A stretch of DNA of 64,000 bases from Halanaeroarchaeum sp. HSR-CO (lineage in GTDB: Archaea; Halobacteriota; Halobacteria; Halobacteriales; Halobacteriaceae): the NCBI RefSeq assembly GCF_024972755.1, contig NZ_CP087724.1:1488001-1552000 (forward strand), given 5' to 3'. Each line of letters begins with the position of its first letter. The stretch's first letter is position 1. The position numbers were made by a program, and so were the translations under genes. Positions 2,516 to 38,173 of this stretch are shown here, in pieces. The notes under the pieces were generated by a model that was given only the letters and a program-made list of their open reading frames with translations, did no database searches and was not told the origin of the DNA.

Positions 2516-3230
2516 ATGCCCCCACTCCGATCTCGAATTCGCAAGCATCCAGTGGCAACGTTCGTTATCGGAGCGTACGCATTCACCTGGGCTATCTGGT
2601 TCCCACTGCTGATCGCCTACGAAGGTGGGCGGATCACCTTGACACCGACCATTACAGCGGTTTTCGTACTCGGGAGCTTCGGACCGCTGTTTTCCGCCGC
2701 AGTCGTCACGTCTTTGATTGGCGGTAGCTTGCGGGCCTGATTCTCACAGGTTCTACGATGGCGAGTCGCGCCTAAGTGGTGGGTTGCGGCACTGGGGTTG
2801 CCAGTTGTCCTCTATGGAATCATGGCTACAATCCATCTCGCGCTTGGAGGGACACTCGACTGGGGAGAGGTGAATCCGCTGGCGACCATCCCATTCGCTT
2901 ACCTCACCATCTTCCTGTGGGCGGCGGTAACGAGGAGCTAGGGTGGGGCGGTTTCGCGTTGCCCTATCTGCAAGAGTGATACAGTGCGTTGACGTCGAGC
3001 CTGCTCATTGGCGTGGTCTGGAACGTTTGGCATGCACCGAGCGGCATCGTCGAACTCGGCGTCGCCGCCTGGGCACTGGATCTGCCTATCTATGCTGTCA
3101 TCGTAATCGACATCTCGATTGTTGCGACGCTGTTGTACAACAATACTGGTGGAAGCGTGTTGATCACGATGGTGTTTCACGCCGGCGTGAACGGTGCTCA
3201 GGGACTGTATCTGGTCACGGGAATGTTTAC
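2516..3230 (+). pseudogene. CPBP/CAAX-type intramembrane protease, 5' part of broken gene
   Basis: The translated pieces align with the intact paralogue at 4752-5627: KHPVATFVIGAYAFTWAIW, then the protease motif NEELGWGGF (equivalent to EExxxR with Arg changed to Gly), WNVWHAP, YNNTGGSV and VFHAGVN. Three lesions are visible. A TGA at 2738-2740 replaces a Trp codon, a single-base loss lies near 2925-2930 just before GGGNEEL, and a second TGA at 2977-2979 replaces an Arg. The frame then runs to GMFT at 3230, where an IS element is inserted. The remainder of the gene resumes at 4584. No functional protein can be made. Confidence 0.8.
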
Positions 3231-4583
3231 AAGCGGTTTAGGAGAATGCCCCGGGGCCTGACCCCGGGGTTGAATCCGATAGGCAGGGAAACAAACCATT
3301 AAGGCGATACATCATAAACCAATAGACAGCGATGGAGTACAGTCACCGTTACCCCGCATACCTGACACAACAGGTAGCGGCTGAACTGGAACGCCACATC
3401 GACATTCATCGCCAAGCGTACAACTACACCCGGTACCAGTACGAGAACGTGGATGCCGACAACATCGGCTCCGCGTACAAACACCACTACCGACTTCCCG
3501 ACTGGAAAGACCAGTTTCCCGTCTTCTCAGAGGTTAACTCGAAGGCTTTGCAACGAACCGTCACGCGCTTCTACGACAACCTCTCGACCCTGAAAGAGCA
3601 GAAAGAGAACGGGCGTAAGGTTGGGAACCTCAAGTGGAAGTCGCCGAGGGAGTTCCAGAGTATGACGTACTCGCAGTCTGGCTTCGAACTCAAAAACACG
3701 AGTGGCCGACATGCGACACTCTGGCTCTCCAAGATCGGCGACCTCAAAATCCGCTACCACCGCAACATCCCCGACGAAGCGGACATCAAAGAAGTCACTA
3801 TTAAAAAAGAGACGACCGGCGAGTGGTTCGTCTCGTTCGGCCTCGAAACTGACGAGGCTGACCTGCCCGAGAAACCCGACGTGGACTCCTTGGACACGAG
3901 CAATAGCGTCGGCGTTGACCTCGGTATCCAGAACTACATCCACACTTCGGACGGCAAGACTGTGGATTGGCTCGACCTCGAAGACGAGTACGAGCGTCTA
4001 CGACGCGAGCAACGCGAGTTGTCACGGAAAGAGAAAGCGTCGAACAACTACGAGAAGCAACGCCGGGAAGTGGCGAAGGTCAACCGTCACATTCGGCGGA
4101 AGGTGCTGGACTATCAGCACAAGATAACGACGTGGCTCGTCCGTGAGTACGATGCCGTGTTCGTTGAGGACTTGGATGTGAAAGGGATGCTCGAACAGTC
4201 GCATAACGCCCGCAACAAGCAGGATGCAGCGTGGCGACAGTTCATCACCCTCCTCGAATACAAGGCCGAGCTGTATGGTACGCACGTCGTCCAAGTGGAA
4301 GCCGCTGGGACAACGAAAGAGTGCGCAAAGTGTGGCGTGGCTACGGCGAAACCAATCTGGGTGCGTGAACACTCGTGTCCATCGTGTGGGTTTGAGACAG
4401 ATAGAGATGCAAACGCGGCGATGAACGTCCTACAACGCGGTTTTCAGGAATTAGGGCTGGGATGGCCCGAAAATACGCCCGCAGAGACTGCGCTCCCTAC
4501 GGACACACCTAACTTTCAGCGTGTGTCTGCAAAGCGCGTCGTGGAAACGGGAAGCCTCGGGGCTTGACCCCGAGGCGATTCAC
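3231..4583 (+). mobile_element. IS1341-type (IS200/IS605 superfamily) element carrying only tnpB
   Basis: The boundaries are deduced from the interrupted host gene. The left flank ends in TTTAC (3226-3230), and the element ends in TTCAC (4579-4583). Joining 3230 to 4584 restores the protease reading frame exactly (GMFT + PPGEIARFAAW). Both ends carry subterminal hairpins with closely related stems: CCCCGGGG-CCTGA-CCCCGGGG at 3249-3269 and GCCTCGGGG-CTTGA-CCCCGAGGC at 4554-4576. There is no target duplication, as expected for this superfamily, which inserts 3' of a short pentamer. No tnpA is present, so mobility would need a transposase in trans; the related tnpA at 37459-37863 is a candidate. 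Confidence 0.85.
3332..4567 (+). CDS. tnpB: TnpB, RNA-guided endonuclease of IS200/IS605 superfamily
   Basis: 411 residues with all catalytic elements. The RuvC aspartate is in GVDLG (Asp196), the glutamate in VFVEDLDVKG (about Glu279), and the final aspartate in TDRDANAAMN (about Asp359). A zinc finger has the pairs CAKC (331-334) and CPSC (349-352). The N-terminal half is the usual helical, basic nucleic-acid-binding part. TnpB proteins cut DNA next to a short target-adjacent motif, using an RNA made from the element's right end, and so favour retention of the element. The TTTAC left flank is the expected motif here. The frame is intact, and the last codons run into the right-end hairpin. 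Confidence 0.93.
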   Translation: MEYSHRYPAYLTQQVAAELERHIDIHRQAYNYTRYQYENVDADNIGSAYKHHYRLPDWKDQFPVFSEVNSKALQRTVTRFYDNLSTLKEQKENGRKVGNLKWKSPREFQSMTYSQSGFELKNTSGRHATLWLSKIGDLKIRYHRNIPDEADIKEVTIKKETTGEWFVSFGLETDEADLPEKPDVDSLDTSNSVGVDLGIQNYIHTSDGKTVDWLDLEDEYERLRREQRELSRKEKASNNYEKQRREVAKVNRHIRRKVLDYQHKITTWLVREYDAVFVEDLDVKGMLEQSHNARNKQDAAWRQFITLLEYKAELYGTHVVQVEAAGTTKECAKCGVATAKPIWVREHSCPSCGFETDRDANAAMNVLQRGFQELGLGWPENTPAETALPTDTPNFQRVSAKRVVETGSLGA

Positions 4584-4603
4584 CCCGCCGGGTGAGATTG
4601 CCA
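4420..4603 (+). ncRNA. Predicted omega/reRNA of the tnpB element
   Basis: TnpB guide RNAs in this superfamily are transcribed from the 3' part of tnpB through the right end, and finish with about 16-20 bases of flanking DNA as guide. Here the right end shows the hairpin at 4554-4576, and the predicted guide would be 4584-4603, which is protease-gene sequence. The 5' limit given is arbitrary. This is inferred from family knowledge and the visible hairpin, not from transcript data. Confidence 0.4.
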
Positions 4604-4755
4604 GATTTGCAGCCTGGACGATCCTGGTCTTTGAGGTGGTTTGGCTGGGAGGATCTGGCAAGCGGGAGCGTTCTCGATGTGACCCGCGCCGGCAAACCGA
4701 CCTCGGGACGGAACGAAGGTTAACATTCATTACTGGCCCATCAGGAGGAGTCTAA
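4584..4755 (+). pseudogene. CPBP protease pseudogene, 3' fragment beyond the IS
   Basis: This is the continuation of the broken gene at 2516-3230. The sequence resumes with PPGEIARFAAWTILVFEVVW, which supplies the last hydrophobic helix of the protein. The frame then continues as a basic tail to a stop at 4753-4755. A different frame in the same stretch reads FGWEDLASGSVLDVTRAGKPT and stops at about 4724, and looks more like a normal haloarchaeal CPBP C-terminus, so another frameshift near 4650 is likely. The fragment has no start of its own and is not expected to be expressed. Confidence 0.7.
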
Positions 4756-5627
4756 GCGGTTTTTCCCTGGATATAGGCAACGCCCGGTATCTCACCGTGT
4801 GCGATCGAGTGTCGTCCGAAGTATCCGACGATGAGGAGAACGACGAGTAGTTGTACCCCTAACTGGGTCACCGTTACCGTCGCTACGGCACGTTCGATTA
4901 TGACACCATCCTGGACGATTCGATCAGGAGCCAGCGGCAGCAGGATGTCTGTCGTGTTCACCATCGCGTGGAGGACCATGACGATGAGCACACTCCCGGT
5001 ATTGTTGTAGGCCCACGTCAGAATGACCGAGAGGAGGATTATCCCCACGAACCAGCCGATCTGGTTGACGGGGGTGAATCCCGAATGCGGTGTTATCGGG
5101 ATCACAAAGTAGGGGAGGTGCCAAACAGCCCAGACGACACCAACGATCAGACTCGCGGTGAGTGCACTGTACTGGTCATTCAGATATGGTTGCATGAATC
5201 CCCGCCACCCGGGTTCCTCGTTCAACCCCCCGCTGACCGTAAGACCGAAGATGAAGATAACGACTATCATCGCCGGCGAGGCCGAAAGTTGCGCGAGATC
5301 GACTGGGCCCCCGATAACCACGAGGATACCGGTCGTCACGGCGATGATGGCGACAGGGACACCAAAGGCGACGACCCACCAGGGCCAGCCGACTCGCCAT
5401 CGACCGATTTGACGAGCCCAGGCTCGGACGCTTTCACCCTGCAGCCACGTGACGACTGCGGCACTGACGGGCGGGCCGAAGCTACCGATGTAGATCAGAA
5501 TCCAGGGCGTCCAGCTTAGTTCCATGAAATAGGCTGGAACTGAGATAATCCACGTGTAGGCGTACGCTCCGATAACGAACGCGATTACCGGATGTGTATC
5601 TACCCACGAGATTCGGGGTTGGGTCAT
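4752..5627 (-). CDS. CPBP family intramembrane metalloprotease
   Basis: 291 residues and about eight transmembrane helices. It has the CPBP (Abi/CAAX prenyl protease Rce1-like) signature: NEEPGWRGF (the EExxxR motif), then WAVWHLPYF (first His), YNNTGSVLI, and VLHAMVN (second His). The glutamates and histidines form the metal site that hydrolyses peptide bonds inside the membrane. Substrates of haloarchaeal members are unknown. The gene is intact, converges on the broken paralogue, and is divergent from a third family member at 5811, so the three probably arose by local duplication. The start MTQPRIS is the only good Met ahead of helix 1. Confidence 0.85.
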   Translation of the reverse strand: MTQPRISWVDTHPVIAFVIGAYAYTWIISVPAYFMELSWTPWILIYIGSFGPPVSAAVVTWLQGESVRAWARQIGRWRVGWPWWVVAFGVPVAIIAVTTGILVVIGGPVDLAQLSASPAMIVVIFIFGLTVSGGLNEEPGWRGFMQPYLNDQYSALTASLIVGVVWAVWHLPYFVIPITPHSGFTPVNQIGWFVGIILLSVILTWAYNNTGSVLIVMVLHAMVNTTDILLPLAPDRIVQDGVIIERAVATVTVTQLGVQLLVVLLIVGYFGRHSIAHGEIPGVAYIQGKTA

Positions 5628-5810
5628 TGATCAATTCAATCGGAACATACGCCAATATAATTGTTGGATAGATTTTATTTTTTGATGTTCTTTCTCACTT
5701 CGATGACCGGGGGAAAACCGAATGAAGATGCGTTCCAAGTAAAACAGCGAGGATCCATGCATACCAGGATTGATGATGTGAGATATCAATTATCACTAAC
5801 AGGTTCGACC

Positions 5811-6734
5811 ATGGCCCGACACACCTCCGTTGACATTCTGACTGTATCGGGCTTCCTCGTGCTCACGTTTGGTATCTCGTGGGGTGGTGTGTCGTTGCTG
5901 TGGTTTCTCGATGTAGATCTCGCCAGTGGTGCCGGGCAAGGAATCGGCAGCGTTGTCTTCATGGGTGCGCCTACCATCGCCACAATCGTAATTCTCCGTT
6001 TCCGTGGAAAATCCATTCGTGAAGCATGTGGTCTCTATCTGGGTCGAGCTCGGTGGATTATTCTCGCCTGGATCGCCCCTGTGGGGCTGGTTGCCGTGAT
6101 GATTGGCGTTGGTCTACTGCTACCGGAAACGACGATAACTAGCGAATATTCGGCGTTCTTTCTCGAACTTGGCCAGAGCCCGAATATAGCGGCTGGCACG
6201 ATCGCTGACCTCGGCTCAATTGGTGTTCCACTGGTCGTTCTCTTGGGCGGTTTTGGACTCGTCCTCGGTGGGACGGTCTTCGCAGTCGCCGCCTTCGGCG
6301 AGGAACTCGGCTGGCGGGGATTGCTCCTCACGGAACTGGCGCCGATCGGGTTCTGGAAGGTATCGTTGGTCACGGGCCTCATCTGGGGAATGTGGCACGC
6401 TCCTCTCATCCTCCTTGGACTTCAGTTTTCGAATGAACCAGTCGTCGGAATCCTCCTGATGACTACTGCAACAGTGGTTCTGGCACCAGTGTACACGTAT
6501 TTAACCGTCCGTGCTCGGTCGGTGCTCGCTCCAACGGTTTTCCATGGATCATTCTTCCTCGGAGTATTCACATCTGTGTACTTTGCAGAGGAAAGCGAAC
6601 TCGTGGTTTCACCGTTCGGCGTTGTCGGGATCGTTGCTGGCCTCGTTGGCATTGCATCGTTGGTGGCCCACGATCGACTGATTGCTGAGGAACAACTCAC
6701 CAAAGGCGGGCCACTCCGCCCGTGGTCCGGGTGA
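5811..6734 (+). CDS. CPBP family intramembrane metalloprotease
   Basis: 307 residues from the ATG at 5811 (MARHTSVDIL). A longer frame begins at 5661, but its extra 50 residues are low-complexity and lie before the natural start of helix 1. The protein has about eight membrane helices and the motifs GEELGWRGLL, WGMWHAPLIL and FHGSFFLG, which supply the two glutamates, the arginine and the histidines of the CPBP active site. It is more diverged from the neighbour at 4752 than that one is from the broken copy. It lies divergently from 4752, with about 180 bases between. Its role may be protein maturation or self-immunity, but nothing here decides. Confidence 0.82.
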   Translation: MARHTSVDILTVSGFLVLTFGISWGGVSLLWFLDVDLASGAGQGIGSVVFMGAPTIATIVILRFRGKSIREACGLYLGRARWIILAWIAPVGLVAVMIGVGLLLPETTITSEYSAFFLELGQSPNIAAGTIADLGSIGVPLVVLLGGFGLVLGGTVFAVAAFGEELGWRGLLLTELAPIGFWKVSLVTGLIWGMWHAPLILLGLQFSNEPVVGILLMTTATVVLAPVYTYLTVRARSVLAPTVFHGSFFLGVFTSVYFAEESELVVSPFGVVGIVAGLVGIASLVAHDRLIAEEQLTKGGPLRPWSG

Positions 6735-36130: not shown

Positions 36131-36215
36131 CAGTATTGAAAAAGGTCGTGGACACTATCAACGCATCGACACCGTCGGCACGTCGAGACTGGTAGCACGA
36201 GTGAACTACCCTACC

Positions 36216-37457
36216 CTACTCGCTCACGGCTGACGCCGTATGCTCCTTGAGGGTAGGGCTTCCTGATTCAACGACGCGCTTTGCAGACACGGAGGTGTCC
36301 ACAGGGAGCGCAGTCTCCACAGGCGTTTCTTCGGAGTGTCCCACTCCTACATCGTTGATACCGCGAGAAAGGATGTTCCACGCCGCGTTCGCGTCCCTGT
36401 CCGCCTCAAACCCGCAGGCGGGACAGGAATGTTCACGGACCCACAACGGCTTCTCCGTCGAGACGCCGCACGCCGCACACTCTTTCGTCGTCCCTCTCGG
36501 GTTGACCGCGACGAAGTGCGTTCCTTCACGGTCGCACTTGTATTCGAGCAACGAGAGGAACGTTCGCCACGCCGCCGATGCCGTGTTGCGGCTGTTCGAC
36601 GGCGATTCCATCATCCCCTTCACGTTCAGGTCTTCGACCGCCACGAAGTCGTACTCCCGAGCGTAGTACGCCGAGAGCTTGTGAAGAAAGTCGCGGCGCT
36701 TCCGTCGGAGGTCGGCGTGACACTCCGCAACGCGCCGCCGTTGCTTCTCGTAGTTGTTCGACCCGTGTTGCTTGCGCGAGAGCTTCCGTTGCTCTCGTTC
36801 CAGTCGCTCCCGTTCGTCTGAGAGGTCGAGCGACCCGACCGCCGTGCCGTCCGTATCGTGGGCGTACTTGAGAATCCCCACGTCGATGCCGACGCACTTC
36901 TCGGGGTTCTCAGGCGGTTCGGGCGGTTCGTGGTCGATTTCGACGCCGAAGGTGGCGAACCACTCACCCGTCGGTTCCTTCTTGACCGTGACCTGTTTGA
37001 GCTTCGCGTCGTCGGGGATGGCGCGGTGGAGCCGAATCGGTATGTCCGCGAGTTTCGAGAGTGACAGTACAGTCTGACCGCCCTTCTTGTCGAGCTTGAA
37101 GCCAGACTGACTGTACGTGAAACTCCTGTACTCGCGTGGCGGCTTCCACTTGAGTTGACCGACACCGTAGCCGTTCTCCTTGAGTTTGGAGAGTCCTTTG
37201 AGGTTGTCGAACAGCCGTTCCACGACGGTTTGAAGAACCTTCGAGTACACGTCCGAGAGGCCGTCCCACCACTTCTTGAGGTTGGGGAGTTCCGACCGCA
37301 GAGTGGTCATGGACGGCAGTTCACCGTGTTCGTCTTGGTACTCGTTGAGACGGTAGAGCGTGTGGTTGTACAGTTGCCTACAAATGTCTCGGTGGCGGTC
37401 CAACTCCTCACGGTGGGCGTCGGACGGCTTGAGACGGTACTTGTAGGCGTAGTACAT
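36216..37457 (-). CDS. tnpB: TnpB, RNA-guided endonuclease
   Basis: 413 residues, intact. RuvC residues lie in GIDVGI (Asp), VAVEDLNVKGM (Glu) and ADRDANAAWN (Asp), and the zinc finger is CAAC ... CPAC. The N-terminus is MYYAYKYRLKPSDAHREELD. Its organisation is the same as the TnpB at 3332-4567, with clear sequence similarity in the C-terminal half (for example WVREHSCP.CGFE.DRDANAA), so the two elements are related. Its last codons extend into the right end, where the guide RNA should be encoded. The predicted guide is the complement of 36181-36200. Confidence 0.93.
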   Translation of the reverse strand: MYYAYKYRLKPSDAHREELDRHRDICRQLYNHTLYRLNEYQDEHGELPSMTTLRSELPNLKKWWDGLSDVYSKVLQTVVERLFDNLKGLSKLKENGYGVGQLKWKPPREYRSFTYSQSGFKLDKKGGQTVLSLSKLADIPIRLHRAIPDDAKLKQVTVKKEPTGEWFATFGVEIDHEPPEPPENPEKCVGIDVGILKYAHDTDGTAVGSLDLSDERERLEREQRKLSRKQHGSNNYEKQRRRVAECHADLRRKRRDFLHKLSAYYAREYDFVAVEDLNVKGMMESPSNSRNTASAAWRTFLSLLEYKCDREGTHFVAVNPRGTTKECAACGVSTEKPLWVREHSCPACGFEADRDANAAWNILSRGINDVGVGHSEETPVETALPVDTSVSAKRVVESGSPTLKEHTASAVSE

Positions 37458-37458
37458 T

Positions 37459-37863
37459 CTACTCGCGTTGGTCCTCTACGTACTGTTTCAGCACATCCAG
37501 CGACACCTGCCCCGTCGAGATGAGGCAGTACGAGTCGTTCCAGAACGAGTCGCCCCACAGTTCGGTCTTGAGTTCGTCCGCGTACTCGTTGCGGATACGG
37601 CGGGCGGTCGCGCCCTTGGCCGTGTTGATGAACTTCACGAGGTCTGTGGTTGGTTTCGCTCGAAAGAGGATGTGTACGTGGTCGTCCTCGCCGTCGAGGT
37701 TCGTCAGTTCGACACCGTAGTTGTCCGTGAACCCGCTGATGACCTCGTGAATGAATTGGGTTCGCTCCTCGGTTAGCACTCCGCGCCGATACTTCGTGGT
37801 GAGTATCAGGTGGTAGTGCAGGGAATACGTCGAATGCGCTCCCGTGTCGAGGTCGTACTCCAT
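37459..37863 (-). CDS. tnpA: TnpA, Y1 HUH transposase of IS200/IS605 type
   Basis: 134 residues, the usual length. The HUH metal motif is DDHVHILF (His62 and His64), and the catalytic tyrosine is in KQYVEDQ (Tyr128). Other family marks are YHLILTTKYRRGVL near the N-terminus and WNDSYCLISTG. It cuts and joins single-stranded element ends at the TTCAC-type sites. tnpB starts two bases downstream. It could mobilise the tnpA-less element at 3231-4583, which shares the TTCAC end. Confidence 0.94.
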   Translation of the reverse strand: MEYDLDTGAHSTYSLHYHLILTTKYRRGVLTEERTQFIHEVISGFTDNYGVELTNLDGEDDHVHILFRAKPTTDLVKFINTAKGATARRIRNEYADELKTELWGDSFWNDSYCLISTGQVSLDVLKQYVEDQRE

Positions 37864-37963
37864 TGGGTTCGACCAATACTATACTACCCTACTGCAAAAA
37901 CGTTGTGATTGCGTGGGCCTGTGGGCCTGCTACCGAATCGTGTATGAGAACTGTGCGGCGTTG

Positions 37964-38012
37964 ACGAGACGCAAAGCGTCTCGTTCGCACACCAGAAATC
38001 TTCGATTTCTGG
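37964..38012. repeat. Two adjacent perfect hairpins beside the IS605-like element
   Basis: ACGAGACGC-AAA-GCGTCTCGT (37964-37984) and CCAGAAATC-TTC-GATTTCTGG (37992-38012), each with a 9-base stem and a 3-base loop, seven bases apart. They lie 60-110 bases outside the deduced left end of the element. Nothing in the 37905-38173 interval codes for protein. They may be ends of another small element or a structured RNA. Confidence 0.5.
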
Positions 38013-38173
38013 GGACGCTGTATCCCCTCCCTGCTCGCCCCTCCCGTTCGGTCGGCGCTCGCTGAGGAAGGGGGCTTAGCGCCTACTTTCAGCTAAACTT
38101 ACCAGTTCCTTTGACGGCCGGACGACGGTAGATCCTGAAATACACCGATAGCCAGAAGTAGAACTCGGCTTTG

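What the first reader, a model, noticed from the sequence alone, without database searches (positions are those of the whole stretch)
2516..4755. IS insertion that can be undone exactly on paper
Removing 3231-4583 joins GMFT to PPGEIARFAAW in frame within a CPBP protease gene. This fixes both ends of the element, its TTTAC target (likely the TnpB target-adjacent motif) and its TTCAC terminus. The gene also has two TGA codons and a frameshift outside the element. The order of these events cannot be told from this sequence.
Basis: seen in the sequence. Interest (0 to 1): 0.6.

Follow-up and report, generated by a model that had tools for sequence, protein, structure and literature searches.

The report
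TnpB-only transposon in broken protease gene
A small mobile element carrying only an RNA-guided nuclease gene (tnpB) sits cleanly, with nothing gained or lost, inside a decaying membrane-protease gene of a salt-loving archaeon; this is a new but ordinary member of a known transposon group, and its ends obey the base-pairing rule by which this group chooses where to jump.

Summary
Bases 3231-4583 are a TnpB-only IS200/IS605-family element (IS1341 group). Removing them gives a gap-free match to uninterrupted CAAX/CPBP genes of two Halobellus plasmids (about 71% identical). However, the reading frame does not fix the ends as claimed. TTTAC (left flank) and TTCAC (right end) are a near-repeat, seven junction registers give the same protein, and the Halobellus genes read TTCAC at the site. 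The stated register is right for other reasons. Copies elsewhere end at the same points. A sister insertion has six empty sites at 91-96% identity, all keeping the left 5-mer. Each end's guide pairs with its cleavage site by the IS608 code (GAATG/TTTAC, GGAAG/TTCAC), with natural compensatory changes (GAATA/TTTAT, GAGTG/TCTAC). Order of events: four disabling lesions in the host gene and none in tnpB (P about 0.03 under equal neutral decay) favour a late insertion or selection on tnpB. A structured omega-RNA with strong covariation overlaps the tnpB 3' end. Transposase is presumably supplied in trans.

The parts
2516..3230 (+). 5' part of a decayed type II CAAX / CPBP endopeptidase gene
   Evidence: 71.5% and 70.4% nt identity to intact genes in Halobellus DFY28 and H. 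limi plasmids
2738..2740 (+). premature TGA (ortholog TGG, Trp)
2918..2919 (+). 1-nt deletion in a G-run (frameshift)
   Evidence: alignment with both orthologs
2977..2979 (+). premature TGA (ortholog CGA, Arg)
3226..3230 (+). TTTAC target / left cleavage site (CL), expected TnpB TAM; host sequence
   Evidence: invariant next to copies with unrelated flanks; the matching TTTAT stays in six empty sites of L037
3231..4583 (+). TnpB-only IS200/IS605-family (IS1341-group) element, 1353 bp
   Evidence: homology with L002 runs exactly TTTAC to TTCAC; identical length in L020, L021, L081
3244..3248 (+). left guide GAATG, pairs with TTTAC
   Evidence: guide/target covariation; pairs as in IS608 (PMC5934647)
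3249..3269 (+). left-end hairpin CCCCGGGG-CCTGA-CCCCGGGG
3332..4567 (+). tnpB, 411 aa, intact; RuvC D196, E279, D359; zinc ribbon C331 C334 C349 C352
   Evidence: Pfam PF01385 and PF07282; aligned with TnpB structures; residues
4478..4583 (+). structured 3' part of the predicted omega-RNA, overlapping the tnpB 3' end
   Evidence: 30 pairs, 13 with compensatory change, 98% of cells paired, 0 of 500 shuffles reach it
4550..4554 (+). right guide GGAAG, pairs with TTCAC
   Evidence: conserved in end types ending TTCAC; GGATT where the end is TTCAA
4554..4576 (+). right-end hairpin GCCTCGGGG-CTTGA-CCCCGAGGC
4579..4583 (+). TTCAC right cleavage site (CR) = element terminus
4584..4599 (+). host sequence expected to be the omega-RNA guide (CCCGCCGGGTGAGATT)
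   Evidence: inference from ISDra2 TnpB (PMC8612924)
4584..4723 (+). 3' part of the decayed CPBP gene; 8-nt deletion after 4629; orthologous frame ends TAA 4721-4723

Best explanation
A non-autonomous, TnpB-only IS200/IS605-family element (IS1341 group) inserted 3' of a TTTAC site in a CPBP protease gene, without target duplication or deletion, so the flanks still join exactly. Shown: the anatomy, the empty sites, the end register, the intact tnpB with RuvC and zinc-ribbon residues, the covarying omega-RNA structure and the guide:cleavage-site pairing. Inferred: a TnpA supplied in trans cuts single-stranded DNA after TTTAC and after TTCAC, selecting them through guides GAATG and GGAAG ('peel and paste'). 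The genome's own autonomous element at G000:C1:1479.8-1481.8 kb has the same hairpin type and is a candidate donor. TnpB with an omega-RNA ending in the 3' flank would cut the re-formed empty site TTTAC-CCCGCCGGGTGAGATT, favouring restoration of the element. The insertion was probably late relative to the gene's decay, or tnpB has been kept by selection.
For: Empty orthologs align gap-free. Second genomic copy homologous exactly TTTAC to TTCAC. End survey of 30 or so loci. Sister insertion L037: six empty sites at 91-96% identity all read TTTAT at the join. Guide/target pairs TTTAC/GAATG, TTTAT/GAATA, TCTAC/GAGTG, TCTAT/GAGAA covary. In a second set of loci, 15 TTTAC/GAATG and 15 TTTAT/GAATA with no cross combination. 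This is the IS608 pairing of the solved complex (PMC5934647). omega-RNA covariation. TnpB matches ISDra2 TnpB structures. The related TnpB-only element in Natribaculum breve has two copies differing at 2 of 1353 bases at different sites, so this kind moves. Own-genome autonomous element with the same hairpins. Lesion bias P = 0.028.
Against: No empty site of this very locus from the same species is available; the orthologs are about 71% identical and read TTCAC at the site. N. breve, where the element moved recently, has no close TnpA of the candidate donor type (best 42%), so the donor in trans is not established. The candidate donor itself uses TCTAC, not TTTAC. The timing argument assumes equal neutral rates. 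No activity was measured.
Confidence: 0.87

Rival explanations
1. The junction is five bases further left: TTTAC belongs to the element and the right-hand TTCAC to the host gene (remove 3226-4578).
For: Gives the same protein; the Halobellus empty orthologs read TTCAC at this place.
Against: Six close empty sites of sister insertion L037 keep the left 5-mer TTTAT, not TTCAC. At the L020 insertion, homologs often have Lys or Asn codons that fit TTTAC and never Glu as TTCAC would require (codons read by eye). The left guide covaries with the left 5-mer. The Halobellus difference is a synonymous TTT/TTC change.
Confidence: 0.03
2. The insertion came first and inactivated the gene; the stops and frameshifts followed as neutral decay. 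(A rival on the order of events only, not on what the element is.)
For: An insertion removes selection on the host gene; both stops are C:G to T:A transitions, as in ordinary decay.
Against: tnpB, 1.4 times longer, has no lesion while the host gene has four; P = 0.028 if both decayed neutrally at the same rate. This rival needs purifying selection on tnpB after insertion.
Confidence: 0.35
3. The element is no longer a mobile nuclease but a domesticated TnpB or RNA gene that persists for a regulatory use.
For: RNAs from the 3' ends of tnpB genes are expressed in archaea (PMC12558985, and the 2015 paper it cites, which I could not read); only one close copy in this genome.
Against: RuvC triad, zinc ribbon, both hairpins, both guides and both cleavage sites are intact; relatives sit at many unrelated sites and some copies are nearly identical.
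Confidence: 0.08
4. The stops and frameshifts of the host gene are sequencing errors and the gene was intact before the insertion.
For: One lesion is a 1-nt deletion in a G-run.
Against: Two clean nonsense transitions, an 8-nt deletion and a change in the EExxxR motif are not typical errors.
Confidence: 0.04

Closest known systems
IS1341-group (tnpB-only) elements of haloarchaea, as described in Haloquadratum and Natronomonas (PMC3119063)
   Same: tnpB without linked tnpA, near-terminal palindromes, no target duplication, few close copies per genome
   Different: Here both ends, the target and the guides are defined from empty sites and covariation; PMC3119063 says such boundaries are hard to annotate
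IS608 (ISHp608) of Helicobacter pylori (PMC5934647)
   Same: Insertion 3' of a short target retained in the left flank; a guide 5' of each hairpin pairs with the cleavage site (A16:T-3, A17:T-4 in the solved complex)
   Different: IS608 carries its own tnpA, target TTAC, right end TCAA; here TTTAC/TTCAC, one extra base in the guide, no tnpA
ISDra2 and its TnpB (PMC8612924)
   Same: 5-nt target/TAM, right-end RNA guide, RuvC plus zinc-ribbon TnpB
   Different: Target TTGAT, own tnpA; TnpB only distantly similar (E 2e-33)
Autonomous IS605 element at G000:C1:1479.8-1481.8 kb (L142)
   Same: Same hairpin type at both ends (loop CTTGA), right end TTCAC
   Different: Has tnpA, a different TnpB (22% identity), target TCTAC with guide GAGTG

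Membership tests
IS200/IS605 family, IS1341 group | TnpB with OrfB_IS605 and TNB/zinc-ribbon domains | tested here: met
   PF01385 and PF07282 above cut-off
IS200/IS605 family, IS1341 group | no tnpA inside the element | tested here: met
   the four Y1 transposase genes of the genome lie elsewhere
IS200/IS605 family, IS1341 group | subterminal hairpins at both ends | tested here: met
IS200/IS605 family, IS1341 group | insertion 3' of a short target, no target duplication | tested here: met
   gap-free empty orthologs; L037 empty sites
IS200/IS605 family, IS1341 group | guide sequences pairing with both cleavage sites | tested here: met
   few exceptions (L144, L048, L033 left; L146 right)
IS200/IS605 family, IS1341 group | mobility by TnpA in trans | tested here: inconclusive
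   a relative moved recently; candidate donor in own genome, but no close homologue of it in N. breve
TnpB RNA-guided nuclease (OMEGA) | RuvC catalytic D-E-D and zinc ribbon | tested here: met
   D196, E279, D359; C331 C334 C349 C352; assignment by motif, not by experiment
TnpB RNA-guided nuclease (OMEGA) | structured omega-RNA from the right end | tested here: met
   covariation beyond shuffles and slides; no Rfam match; expression not tested
TnpB RNA-guided nuclease (OMEGA) | TAM-dependent cleavage guided by the 3' flank | not testable with these tools
   needs biochemistry
Type II CAAX / CPBP endopeptidase (host gene) | PF02517 domain with EExxxR motif | tested here: inconclusive
   fragment scores 21.2 bits, below the 22.4 cut-off; orthologs are annotated CAAX endopeptidase; the Arg of the motif is Gly here

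The most novel reading that the evidence does not exclude
In haloarchaea, TnpB-only elements exchange their end hairpins, and so perhaps their TnpA partner, while each TnpB lineage keeps its own guide and hence its TAM. Relatives of this TnpB (about 81-89% identical) carry either of two hairpin types, yet keep TTTAC/GAATG, whereas the autonomous elements with those hairpins use TCTAC or, apparently, TTAGC.
Probability: 0.55. Interest if true: 0.55.

Novelty: new member of a known kind. Interest (0 to 1): 0.36.

Why it matters
Boundaries, targets and mobility of haloarchaeal tnpB-only elements have been called hard to define and hard to reconcile with TnpA-dependent transposition (PMC3119063). 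This case gives exact ends, a TAM prediction (TTTAC) and a natural series of compensatory guide/target changes that matches the IS608 crystal-structure pairing. That makes the trans-mobilisation idea and the TnpB target motif directly testable in a laboratory haloarchaeon.

Tried and rejected
Near-identical empty site for this locus: none in 146 related genomes at DNA level nor in the plasmid collection beyond the two Halobellus genes. L024 and L081 gave no empty site covering both flanks. L020 empty homologs are too diverged to be decisive alone. Rfam search for the omega-RNA: nothing. Idea that the genome's TTCAC-ending autonomous element is the proven donor: weakened, since N. breve lacks a close TnpA of that type. 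Automatic hairpin detection failed on roughly half of the extra loci; only those parsed cleanly support the code. Dating the insertion from substitution patterns was not possible: the host gene still shows an excess of third-position change, so its decay is recent relative to the split from Halobellus.

Full report
Observation. The window is part of a 2.79-Mb haloarchaeal genome. Bases 3332-4567 are an intact 411-aa tnpB with OrfB_IS605 and Cas12f1-like TNB domains, similar to the solved ISDra2 TnpB. On both sides lies a decayed type II CAAX / CPBP gene. Its intact orthologs are on plasmids of Halobellus sp. DFY28 and H. limi, at about 71% DNA identity. With 3231-4583 left out, the window gene aligns to both through the junction without a gap: GMFT-PPGEIARFAAW against GMFT-PTGELARFVAW. 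So the empty site exists in relatives and the insertion added or removed nothing else.

What the frame does and does not show. TTTAC before the element and TTCAC at its end are a near-repeat. Seven junction registers give the same protein. The Halobellus genes read TTCAC there, so on letters alone they fit the alternative join 3225/4579 at least as well. Three other lines fix the register.

(1) Copies: the second genomic copy L002 is homologous from TTTAC to TTCAC and only one chance base further, and about 20 relatives show the same limits with unrelated flanks.

(2) Empty sites: a sister subfamily inserts after TTTAT and ends in TTCAC. For its copy L037, which sits in another tnpB gene, six empty sites at 91-96% identity all read TTTAT at the join, so the left 5-mer is host sequence and TTCAC is the element's end. 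At L020, homologs often carry Lys or Asn codons fitting TTTAC and never the Glu that TTCAC would give.

(3) Guide/target covariation: the five bases before the left hairpin vary together with the left 5-mer: TCTAC/GAGTG at 23 loci, TTTAC/GAATG at 20, TTTAT/GAATA at 11, TCTAT/GAGAA at 2, with single cases TGTAC/GACTG (L159) and TTAGC/CTAAG (L003/L004) read by eye. In a further set of loci there were 15 TTTAC/GAATG, 15 TTTAT/GAATA and no cross combination. The loci are related, so these are a handful of independent changes rather than dozens. The changing pairs include target -4 with guide A17, a pair of the IS608 target complex, and target -1 with the last guide base (PMC5934647, for the complex; the second pair from the IS608 guide AAAG and site TTAC as given there, by inference). 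At the right end GGAAG goes with TTCAC, and GGATT with TTCAA. Exceptions are L144, L048 and L033 at the left and L146 at the right end.

The host gene. The Arg of the EExxxR motif is Gly. The stop at 4753-4755 lies in a shifted frame; the orthologous frame ends at 4721-4723. Third-position differences still dominate, so decay is recent compared with the split from Halobellus. Four disabling lesions in 857 bp and none in the 1236-bp tnpB has probability 0.028 if both decayed neutrally at the same rate. Either the element arrived late or tnpB is under selection; this does not separate the two.

How it works. The 3' end of tnpB plus the right end folds into a conserved RNA: 30 pairs, 13 with compensatory changes, 98% of cells paired, 0 of 500 shuffles as good, and slid versions far worse. 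That is the place of the guide RNA in ISDra2 (PMC8612924), so the guide here would be CCCGCCGGGTGAGATT and the TAM TTTAC. Excision and insertion need a TnpA in trans. The genome has four tnpA genes. One belongs to an autonomous element 9 kb away with the same hairpin type at both ends; its relatives in about 25 genomes share that left end and mostly target TCTAC. In Natribaculum breve two copies of a close TnpB-only relative differ at 2 of 1353 bases at different sites, so such elements do move; but that genome has no close TnpA of this type (best 42%), so the donor is open.

Context and novelty. tnpB-only elements are known to be abundant in haloarchaea with unclear boundaries and mobility (PMC3119063), and transposition by a TnpA acting in trans has been proposed in Halanaerobium (PMC7290912). 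This is a new member of a known kind. The less expected point is that close TnpB relatives carry different end hairpins (at least 3 changes for type B are forced by well-supported branches) while keeping TTTAC/GAATG, as if the hairpin follows the TnpA and the guide follows the TnpB.

Noticed in passing
window 36200-38096 (-) and G000:C1:1416089-1417985 (L004, L003): Two 100% identical 1.9-kb IS605 elements with tnpA and tnpB, right end TTCAC, target apparently TTAGC; recently active in this genome.
   Followed up: partly
G000:C1:1479840-1481837 (L142): Autonomous IS605 element with divergent tnpA and tnpB whose end hairpins match those of the TnpB-only element although its TnpB is only 22% identical.
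   Followed up: yes
loci L020 and L037: TnpB-only elements inserted inside other tnpB genes, as reported for Haloquadratum where mobile elements target mobile elements.
   Followed up: partly
loci L024, L027, L030, L041, L145, L156: The loop of the right-end (and in some tnpA elements the left-end) hairpin is replaced by a roughly 60-nt two-hairpin insert (TCG..GAGAG..GATGACGAGA..CGAACCA) that recurs in several lineages.
   Followed up: no
window 4752-5627 (-) and 5661-6734 (+): A CPBP gene, intact and 43% identical to the Halobellus ortholog, next to the broken one, followed by an ORF with a weaker CPBP-like match.
   Followed up: no
L193, L196 and L273-L275 in Natribaculum breve: The same short sequence (TTGTGGGTAAGAGACAG) lies at the left edge of truncated TnpB-only copies and beside tnpA genes, perhaps the end of another mobile element.
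   Followed up: no
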